Assembly (NCBI RefSeq): GCF_027587195.1
Contig: NZ_JAPDDP010000039.1
Coordinates: 1-64,000, forward strand
Source: Solirubrobacter phytolaccae
Lineage (GTDB): Bacteria > Actinomycetota > Thermoleophilia > Solirubrobacterales > Solirubrobacteraceae
Reading direction: 5' to 3'
Length of the DNA: 64,000 bases
The notes under the pieces are model-generated. The model was given only the letters and a program-made list of their open reading frames with translations, was not told the DNA's origin and did no database searches. Below are positions 24,936 to 42,545 of the stretch, piece by piece. Within the stretch, counting starts at the first letter, position 1, and every line of letters starts with the position of its first letter. A program made the translations under genes and the position numbers.

Positions 24936-24953
24936 GGCTATTCGCGCGGGCCG

Positions 24954-24994
24954 ATCCGTCAGTTGCCGCCCCTGAGGGGCGGAAAGTGACGGAT
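24954..24994. terminator. nested bidirectional terminator
   Basis: The outer stem ATCCGTCA (24954-24961) pairs with TGACGGAT (24987-24994). The inner stem CCGCCCC-TGA-GGGGCGG spans 24966-24982. A second 8-bp stem (25000-25007 with 25027-25034) follows. The structure lies between the convergent HD-GYP-like and HtaA genes and can serve both directions. Confidence 0.6.
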
Positions 24995-25047
24995 GACCGG
25001 GGTGGCGAGCTGGTCCGCCGCGAGCGCGCCACCCGAGCGGAGCTCCA

Positions 25048-39088: not shown

Positions 39089-39602
39089 GGCGCGCGTGGG
39101 CGGCGTGGAGCTCCGCGCGCGACGCGCCTTGCTGCGCCGCCACGTCCGGGGAGCACACCGTCGGGCGCCGCGTCAAGAAACTCGTGCCCGCCACGGCGGC
39201 GGAGTGCGCCGCCGTCGTCACGAGTTTCTTGACCCGACGCGGCCGGCGCGCTCTGGGCTGGTCAGGCCGGCTGGGGCCGGCGAGCCCCCGCGCGGGCCAA
39301 GTGCGCACGTGCACGCGAGCGCTGGATTTCTGGGCGCAGCGACCAGAAACCCAGCACTCGCGTGTCCAACGCCACGCGAAGGTTCACGAACTCGGCCCGG
39401 GGACGAGCAAGTGAACGCTCGCGTGGCACCACGACGCAAACGAGCGCACCGCGCCCGCGCCCGGGCGCCCCCGGGGCACCCGGCTCACCCGCACAAGAGC
39501 GCGCCGGCCGCGGCGGGTCAAGCGGCCAACCGCGAAGCGTTGGACGCTTGACGCGACGCCCGACGGTGTGCTCCCCGACGCGAACGCGAGCCCACGCGCG
39601 CC
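39089..39602. repeat. outermost 13-base inverted repeat around the four-way palindrome
   Basis: GGCGCGCGTGGGC (39089-39101) recurs as its exact inverse at 39590-39602. It frames the main element but is not continuous with its arms (45 bases on the left, 12 on the right). The sequence is GC-rich, so chance is not excluded. Confidence 0.4.
39147..39577. repeat. 431-base nested palindrome that can fold as a four-way junction
   Basis: Arm 1, the outer stem, pairs 39147-39177 with 39547-39577 (30 of 31). Arm 2 is the hairpin 39172-39186/39219-39233 (15 of 15) with an inner 9-bp stem 39193-39201/39207-39215. Arm 3 pairs 39228-39254 with 39496-39522 (26 of 27) and is tipped by hairpins 39312-39333/39343-39364 (20 of 22) and 39371-39387/39411-39427 (15 of 17). 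Arm 4 is 39517-39530/39539-39552 (13 of 14). All arms meet at GTCAAG (39172, 39517) and CTTGAC (39228, 39547), so the junction can migrate. It lies between the convergent DHA2 and uvrA genes and holds no credible gene. Nature unknown: structured RNA, mobile DNA or recombination site. Confidence 0.8.
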
Positions 39603-39630
39603 ACCCGAGCGGAACGCCACGGCGACAAGG

Positions 39631-39656: not shown

Positions 39657-42545
<2,889 letters not shown>

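What the first reader, a model, noticed from the sequence alone, without database searches (positions are those of the whole stretch)
39147..39577. 431-base nested palindrome with a four-armed, migratable junction
Four long stems meet at one point and each is almost perfectly complementary: outer arm 30/31, lateral arms 15/15 and 13/14, inner arm 26/27 tipped by two more hairpins (20/22 and 15/17). The hexamers at the junction are identical in pairs (GTCAAG at 39172 and 39517; CTTGAC at 39228 and 39547), so every arm can exchange partners with its neighbours, as in a Holliday junction. Mismatches are few and scattered, which suggests the folded shape is maintained. It fits no family I recognise: not a terminator, riboswitch, CRISPR or standard transposon. 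Candidates are a structured RNA, a hairpin-based recombination site or a non-autonomous mobile element.
Basis: seen in the sequence. Interest (0 to 1): 0.92.

Follow-up and report, generated by a model that had tools for sequence, protein, structure and literature searches.

The report
Dispersed Solirubrobacter nested-hairpin repeat
The 431-base palindrome is one copy of a dispersed family of nested-hairpin DNA repeats in Solirubrobacter soil bacteria that sit mostly between the tail ends of two facing genes; what evolution preserves is two separate hairpins, not the four-armed junction first proposed.

Summary
The palindrome is real (stems 30/31, 15/15, 13/14, 26/27; fold z about -15) and is one copy of a dispersed repeat. 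I collected 64 terminal modules (TM) at 45 loci of this 7.7-Mb genome; a covariance model finds the family in 5 of 7 Solirubrobacter genomes and in only one other, marginally, of 201 genomes of the order. An element is two inverted TMs round an interior of exchangeable hairpins. Each TM is itself an 80-105-nt hairpin. Across 83 TMs the two arms of one TM covary strongly (1162/1494 Watson-Crick cells, shuffled 1043±8); left and right TMs of an element match no better than random partners. So a folded shape is maintained, but as two local hairpins; the four-armed junction is a by-product. Elements favour gaps between convergent genes (38/68 against 44/354), often fused to a stop codon. At three orthologous loci other species show near-empty gaps, lone hairpins or an unrelated nested palindrome. 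Best reading: a genus-specific, non-autonomous mosaic palindromic repeat of the REP/BIME/REPIN kind; mobilising enzyme unknown.

The parts
39105..39623 (.). whole element including its two outer tails
   Evidence: tails recur outside the terminal modules of other copies; gap between MFS and uvrA genes is 580 nt here
39105..39150 (+). left outer tail, GTGGAGCTCCGCGCGCGACGCG type
   Evidence: same tail type in e.g. L031, L032, L033, L034, L038, L140
39151..39255 (+). left terminal module (long class): outer arm, GTCAAG...CTTGAC side hairpin, inner arm
   Evidence: CM hit 102.5 bits; local stem covaries across TMs
39172..39233 (+). side hairpin of the left terminal module
   Evidence: 15/15 stem
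39312..39364 (+). interior hairpin 1 (CACGCGAGCGCTGG...CCAGCACTCGCGTG)
   Evidence: sequence; MFE fold
39371..39427 (+). interior hairpin 2 (GCCACGCGAAGG...CGCTCGCGTGGC); a related hairpin stands alone at L069
   Evidence: inverted repeat I4; L069
39495..39573 (-). right terminal module (short class)
   Evidence: CM hit 83.4 bits
39517..39552 (-). side hairpin of the right terminal module
   Evidence: 13/14 stem
39574..39623 (-). right outer tail, GTGGCGTTCCGCTCGGGTGGCGCGC type
   Evidence: same tail type in e.g. L036, L038, L048, L050, L134
37655..39076 (+). left neighbour, MFS-type transporter gene (name by recall), running towards the element
   Evidence: own gene caller; orthologous in 5 other genomes
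39657..42545 (-). right neighbour, uvrA (name by recall), running towards the element
   Evidence: matched in 7 of 7 genus genomes

Best explanation
A non-autonomous, mosaic, palindromic dispersed repeat confined, as far as searched, to Solirubrobacter. SHOWN: many copies; a modular plan of two inverted terminal modules (TM), each a long imperfect hairpin with a GTCAAG...CTTGAC side hairpin at its tip, round exchangeable interior hairpins; compensatory change inside TMs and no left-right coupling; concentration at gene 3' ends, above all between convergent genes, often fused to the stop codon; near-empty orthologous gaps in other species; different interiors in orthologous copies. INFERRED: the TM hairpin in single-stranded DNA is what a trans-acting enzyme recognises, most simply an HUH/Y1-type transposase working as on REP/REPIN hairpins, so selection to stay recognisable keeps each TM paired; new hairpins enter or leave nested in older ones, by insertion, by slippage between short direct repeats, or by conversion between copies; gaps between convergent stop codons are where an insert does least harm. 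The four-armed fold is the automatic result of placing two copies of one hairpin head to head. Any effect on the flanking genes (3'-end structure, insulation of convergent transcription) would be secondary and copy-specific.
For: Copies: (131 HSPs in own genome); 64 TMs at 45 loci in G000, 115 TMs at 78 loci in the 4 genomes fetched. Genus restriction: 5 of 7 genus genomes, 6 of 201 in the order, the sixth marginal at E 2.2e-4; pattern scan 24 of 27 stretches in Solirubrobacter. Local covariation: 99.4% of cells paired against 90.3% shuffled, 89 double-change cells against 27.9, 0 of 500 shuffles; 1162/1494 against 1043 +/- 8, best shuffle 1071 of 2000. No left-right coupling. Pair states at positions 3 and 10 occur in several combinations and with both side-hairpin classes, so the changes are more than one lineage event. 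Order: all 35 two-TM loci read '+-' and one three-TM locus '++-'. Context: convergent 38/68 against 44/354, p 7.7e-14; divergent 4/68 against 79/354, p 0.0013; 85 of 115 TM ends face a gene 3' end; 20 of those 85 have the stop fused to a (A)CGGC/ACGTC edge against 13 of 381 other gene 3' ends. Near-empty sites: G002 TAG|CTA and G004 at the L064 locus, G003 overlapping coding ends and G005 short gap at the L053 locus, G005 28-nt gap at the uvrA locus. Interior exchange: L053 and L060 locus orthologues carry different interior hairpins. At L060 the element lies between two terminator-like hairpins, one facing each gene.
Against: No transposition was observed and no target-site duplication seen; no copy with a transposase gene between its TMs was seen among the loci read. 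Y1 (PF01797) genes do not track the family: G005 has 2 and no TM, G001 3 with 4 TMs in the loci fetched, G000 2 with 64, and hairpins beside them are other sequences. At least 16 orthologous gaps are occupied in two or more species, so many copies are old or the gap is a repeated target. Of the five measures one, the number of extra pair types, does not exceed shuffles (80 of 500 as high). 32 of 115 TMs were dropped for indels in an arm, leaving 20 of 35 '+-' elements in the left-right test. The gene calls are from my own caller, unvalidated.
Confidence: 0.72

Rival explanations
1. The element works mainly as RNA: a bidirectional terminator or 3'-end stabiliser between convergent genes, kept for the host.
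For: Strong bias to gaps between convergent genes; paired stems with compensatory changes; some interiors look by eye like A-tract/GC-hairpin/T-tract terminators (L053, L046, L064); three species use different hairpins in the same gap. On one strand the commonest mismatches read as G.U pairs (133 A.C against 4 G.T cells in the outer-to-inner orientation).
Against: The window copy has no terminator-like site. At L060 each gene has its own terminator-like hairpin before the element; at L164, its orthologue, one passes the scan and the other fails it but is visible by eye. Orthologous genes do without any element. A transcript entering from a gene meets the first TM in the A.C orientation, not the G.U one; but this asymmetry rests mostly on two positions and may be shared ancestry.
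Confidence: 0.15
2. The four-armed, branch-migratable junction itself is the functional form (cruciform recombination or replication structure).
For: The full fold is far more stable than separate TMs plus interior (RNA -316.6 against -263.1; DNA -203.5 against -165.4 kcal/mol); long outer and inner complementarity.
Against: No left-right coupling beyond family similarity; 42 of 78 loci have a single recognised TM; left and right TMs often differ in class and arm sequence (listing).
Confidence: 0.05
3. A MITE moved by a classical DDE transposase whose autonomous copy is lost or unassembled.
For: Terminal inverted repeats, size about 400-550 bp, distinct left and right tails in the tailed copies, no ORF of its own.
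Against: No target duplication seen at the near-empty sites compared; ends vary (AACGGC units or 45-nt tails); one-TM copies are common. I did not search for an insertion sequence with these ends.
Confidence: 0.08

Closest known systems
REP/BIME repeats (GTAG- and CGTC-tagged palindromes; PMC3733652, abstract, passages and section 7 seen)
   Same: Dispersed extragenic palindromes, mosaic, genus-specific; mainly between convergent or co-directional genes, conv-REPs under 20 bp from both 3' ends in that paper; some lie inside larger palindromes (A. variabilis, H. neapolitanus)
   Different: REPs are 20-40 bp; here each terminal hairpin is 80-105 nt with a nested side hairpin, no GTAG or CGTC tag was recognised at the foot (read by eye), and G.T pairs in the stem are nearly absent in one orientation
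REPIN (PMC3116915, passages seen)
   Same: Two hairpin-forming units in inverted order round a spacer, treated as one replicating unit, singlets as remnants
   Different: About four times longer, interior built of exchangeable hairpins, no linked RAYT gene found
Nested palindromic repeats of Volvox carteri organelles (PMC2670323, passages seen)
   Same: Palindromes inserted in palindromes, composite elements up to 633 nt, non-coding
   Different: Organelle, AT-richer, 50-nt units; here a bacterial chromosome, fixed two-TM shell, gene-tail location
IS200/IS605 and TnpA-REP hairpin ends (PMC6006769, passages seen)
   Same: Imperfect hairpin ends recognised as single strand (there), no target duplication (recalled)
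   Different: No enzyme tied to this family; known guide tetranucleotides not recognised

Membership tests
REP/BIME | dispersed extragenic imperfect palindromes in many copies | tested here: met
REP/BIME | unit of about 20-40 bp with GTAG or CGTC tag at the foot | tested here: not met
   TM units mostly 79-106 nt; feet read AACGGC/GGG + GAGCAC, no GTAG or CGTC tag at the foot in the listing (by eye)
REPIN/RAYT | two inverted units forming the element | tested here: met
   35 of 35 two-TM loci are '+-'; 42 of 78 loci have one recognised TM
REPIN/RAYT | linked Y1 transposase flanked by the same repeat | tested here: not met
   13 Y1 matches in 6 of 7 genomes; 10 of these loci compared, no TM beside them
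MITE | terminal inverted repeats, no coding capacity | tested here: met
MITE | target-site duplication | tested here: inconclusive
   three loci with near-empty orthologues compared by eye, none seen, but flanks have diverged
MITE | parent IS with the same ends | not tested
   no search with the tails alone was run
structured RNA (Rfam) | match to a described family | tested here: not met
   4 matches up to E 1, all microRNA models far below gathering scores
intrinsic terminator | GC hairpin followed by T-run | tested here: not met
   window copy: 0 sites

The most novel reading that the evidence does not exclude
A shell-and-cassette palindrome system: a conserved pair of hairpin ends occupies the gap between convergent stop codons, its edge helping to form the stop codon, while interior hairpins are exchanged in place over evolution, so that whole genera rebuild their convergent-gene boundaries from a shared pool of hairpins moved by an undescribed single-strand mechanism.
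Probability: 0.25. Interest if true: 0.78.

Novelty: new variant of a known kind. Interest (0 to 1): 0.55.

Why it matters
It gives a clean case in which covariation separates two candidate folds of one palindrome: local hairpins are selected and the striking global junction is not. It also gives orthologous gaps with near-empty, lone-hairpin and nested states side by side, which makes the question of how palindromes come to be nested in palindromes directly testable. The family and its stop-codon-fused edges are not in the papers I found (open-licence library only).

Tried and rejected
Rfam: nothing above gathering score. Y1 transposase as the family's enzyme: genes present in 6 of 7 genomes, numbers do not follow TM numbers, adjacent hairpins are other sequences; kept only as an inference by analogy. 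At the L064 locus G005 has a hairpin like the one beside its own Y1 gene, so Y1-linked hairpins can occupy the same gap. Target duplication round the TM side hairpin: TMs without the side hairpin exist, but the bases that would be the duplicated ones differ (position 18 against 93; 4 of 83 T.T and no listed C.C among the seven commonest types), so insertion and deletion cannot be told apart. Terminator role: not met in the window copy. Strand asymmetry of mismatches as proof of RNA or DNA function: rests mostly on two positions, not decisive. Single pattern hits in Streptomyces, Gemmiger and Butyricicoccus taken as chance, not examined further. Unrelated-family question: the G004 palindrome at the uvrA gap is itself dispersed (20 matches in G004, 9 G000, 7 G002, 10 G001, 0 in G005 and G003), not analysed further. 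In one search the pair L056/L162 had no alignable element although the gap is orthologous, and L127/L159 only 39 nt: against simple vertical inheritance. Coverage: of G004 14 loci with TMs and of G001 3 were fetched, not all that one search lists; G006 elements were not fetched by region. Contig-end copies in G000 could in part be one element split over two contigs.

Full report
OBSERVATION. The stems and hexamers are as described, and the fold is far outside shuffles as RNA (z -15.05) and DNA (z -15.21). The palindrome fills most of a 580-nt gap between a transporter gene and uvrA, which run towards each other. Tails found on other copies extend the element to about 39105-39623.

COPIES. A DNA search of the own genome gave 131 matches. 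I fetched the loci, found that the ends share one module, aligned 47 modules (A1) and built a covariance model (R1). R1 gives 102 matches in the own genome, both strands counted because the module is palindromic. With the better strand kept there are 64 TMs at 45 loci, 60 of them of 60 nt or more. In the genus 5 of 7 genomes match. Across 201 genomes of the order 6 match: five from the genus and one marginal (E 2.2e-4), under stricter filters that lose weak matches. A pattern scan of named genomes gave 27 stretches, 24 in Solirubrobacter (22 S. taibaiensis, 1 S. deserti, 1 sp. CPCC 204708), 3 single hits elsewhere.

ANATOMY. A TM reads outer arm (GAGCACACCGTCGGGCGCCGC), GTCAAG...CTTGAC side hairpin, inner arm (CCGACGCGGCCGGCGCGCTC). 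The arms of one TM pair with each other. Side hairpins come in a short and a long class (total about 79-83 or 100-106 nt); shortened forms of 36-61 nt also occur, some with no side hairpin. All 35 loci with two TMs have them in the order outer-arms-out, one locus has three, 42 have one recognised TM. Interiors are mosaics of different hairpins. One, CCGTCANTTGAC...GTCAANTGACGG, occurs 15 times in G000, once each in G001 and G006, and in none of the other four genus genomes; the G001 copy stands alone in an orthologous gap.

WHAT IS MAINTAINED. On A1, 99.4% of cells of the local structure pair against 90.3% in shuffles; 9 pairs and 89 cells have changes on both sides (shuffles 4.9 and 27.9; 0 of 500 reach either); sliding the partners destroys it. 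One measure, extra pair types, is not beyond shuffles (13 against 11.5, 80 of 500). On 83 TMs without arm indels (32 of 115 dropped) local Watson-Crick cells are 1162/1494 against 1043 +/- 8. In the 20 elements with both arms usable, left-right identity is 366/420 outer (shuffled 358.8 +/- 6.0) and 321/400 inner (326.4 +/- 6.1); an arm pairs better with its own TM than with the other TM of the element (560 against 505 of 720). So each TM is maintained as its own hairpin. The global junction forms because both ends are copies of one hairpin; it is more stable thermodynamically but shows no coupling. Shell haplotypes recombine with each other and with side-hairpin class, so the changes are not one lineage split. 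Non-Watson-Crick cells are 133 A.C and 4 G.T in the outer-to-inner orientation, 109 of the 133 at two positions.

WHERE THEY SIT. Of 68 loci with both neighbours called, 38 are convergent, 26 co-directional, 4 divergent; other adjacent gene pairs of the same loci give 44, 231 and 79 (Fisher p 7.7e-14 and 0.0013). 85 of 115 TM ends face a gene 3' end, 26 a 5' end, 4 none; 20 of the 85 have the stop codon fused to a (A)CGGC or ACGTC edge, against 13 of 381 other gene 3' ends. Ends are of two kinds: AACGGC units, up to about ten in tandem, or a 45-nt tail. In this window the other eight convergent gaps are -80, -40, 3, 112, -4, -23, -14 and -80 nt, so a 500-nt insert is a large change.

ORTHOLOGOUS GAPS. 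MFS-uvrA: G000 one element, G002 a longer one with three TMs, G001 and G006 a lone hairpin, G004 an unrelated nested palindrome, G005 a 28-nt gap with a short hairpin, G003 another left neighbour. L064 locus: G000 element, G002 the two stop codons touching, G004 a few bases, G001 a lone hairpin, G005 a hairpin like that beside its own Y1 gene. L053 locus: G003 coding ends overlap, G005 a short gap, G000 and G002 elements, G001 and G004 degenerate shells with AACGGC edges; the interiors of the four differ. Sixteen orthologous groups occupied in two or more species were compared; similarity is mostly in the shell and patchy inside, two pairs hardly align. At L060 the element lies between terminator-like hairpins facing each gene.

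MECHANISM. Shown: dispersal, modularity, local covariation, gene-tail bias, species-specific occupancy. Inferred: propagation of the hairpin as single-stranded DNA by an enzyme in trans; nesting by later hairpin gain, loss or conversion. Y1 transposases exist (13 matches in 6 of 7 genomes) but nothing links them to this family. A host function as RNA remains possible but is not needed to explain the data and is not supported for the window copy.

KNOWN KINDS. REPs lie mainly in convergent and co-directional gaps, close to 3' ends, and can lie inside palindromes (PMC3733652). REPINs are inverted pairs of REPs (PMC3116915). Palindromes inserted in palindromes reach 633 nt in Volvox mitochondria (PMC2670323). 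This family works like these but fails the REP size/tag definition and the RAYT link. Searches for prior description listed no paper on such repeats in Solirubrobacter; the library holds open-licence papers only.

Noticed in passing
window 24936-25047: A 112-nt convergent gap holds a GATCCGTCAGTTG...GTGACGGAT-like hairpin next to a tail like the type-B tail of the main element, without TMs: a small relative.
   Followed up: partly
L117 2560-2910 (G004, uvrA gap): An unrelated nested palindrome occupies the orthologous gap and has its own dispersed relatives in G004, G000, G002 and G001.
   Followed up: partly
L126 and L132, outside the TM: Tandem AACGGC arrays of about 8-10 units between stop codon and TM.
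   Followed up: no
L175, L178 (G000): Two Y1 (PF01797) transposase genes with short hairpins such as TAAAGAGGGACAGTCCCTCTTTA nearby.
   Followed up: partly
L031, L035, L036, L038, L039, L040, L049, L050, L052: Many copies lie within about 1 kb of contig ends, so the repeat probably breaks the draft assembly.
   Followed up: no
L069 3057-3124: A solitary copy of an interior-type hairpin without TMs.
   Followed up: no
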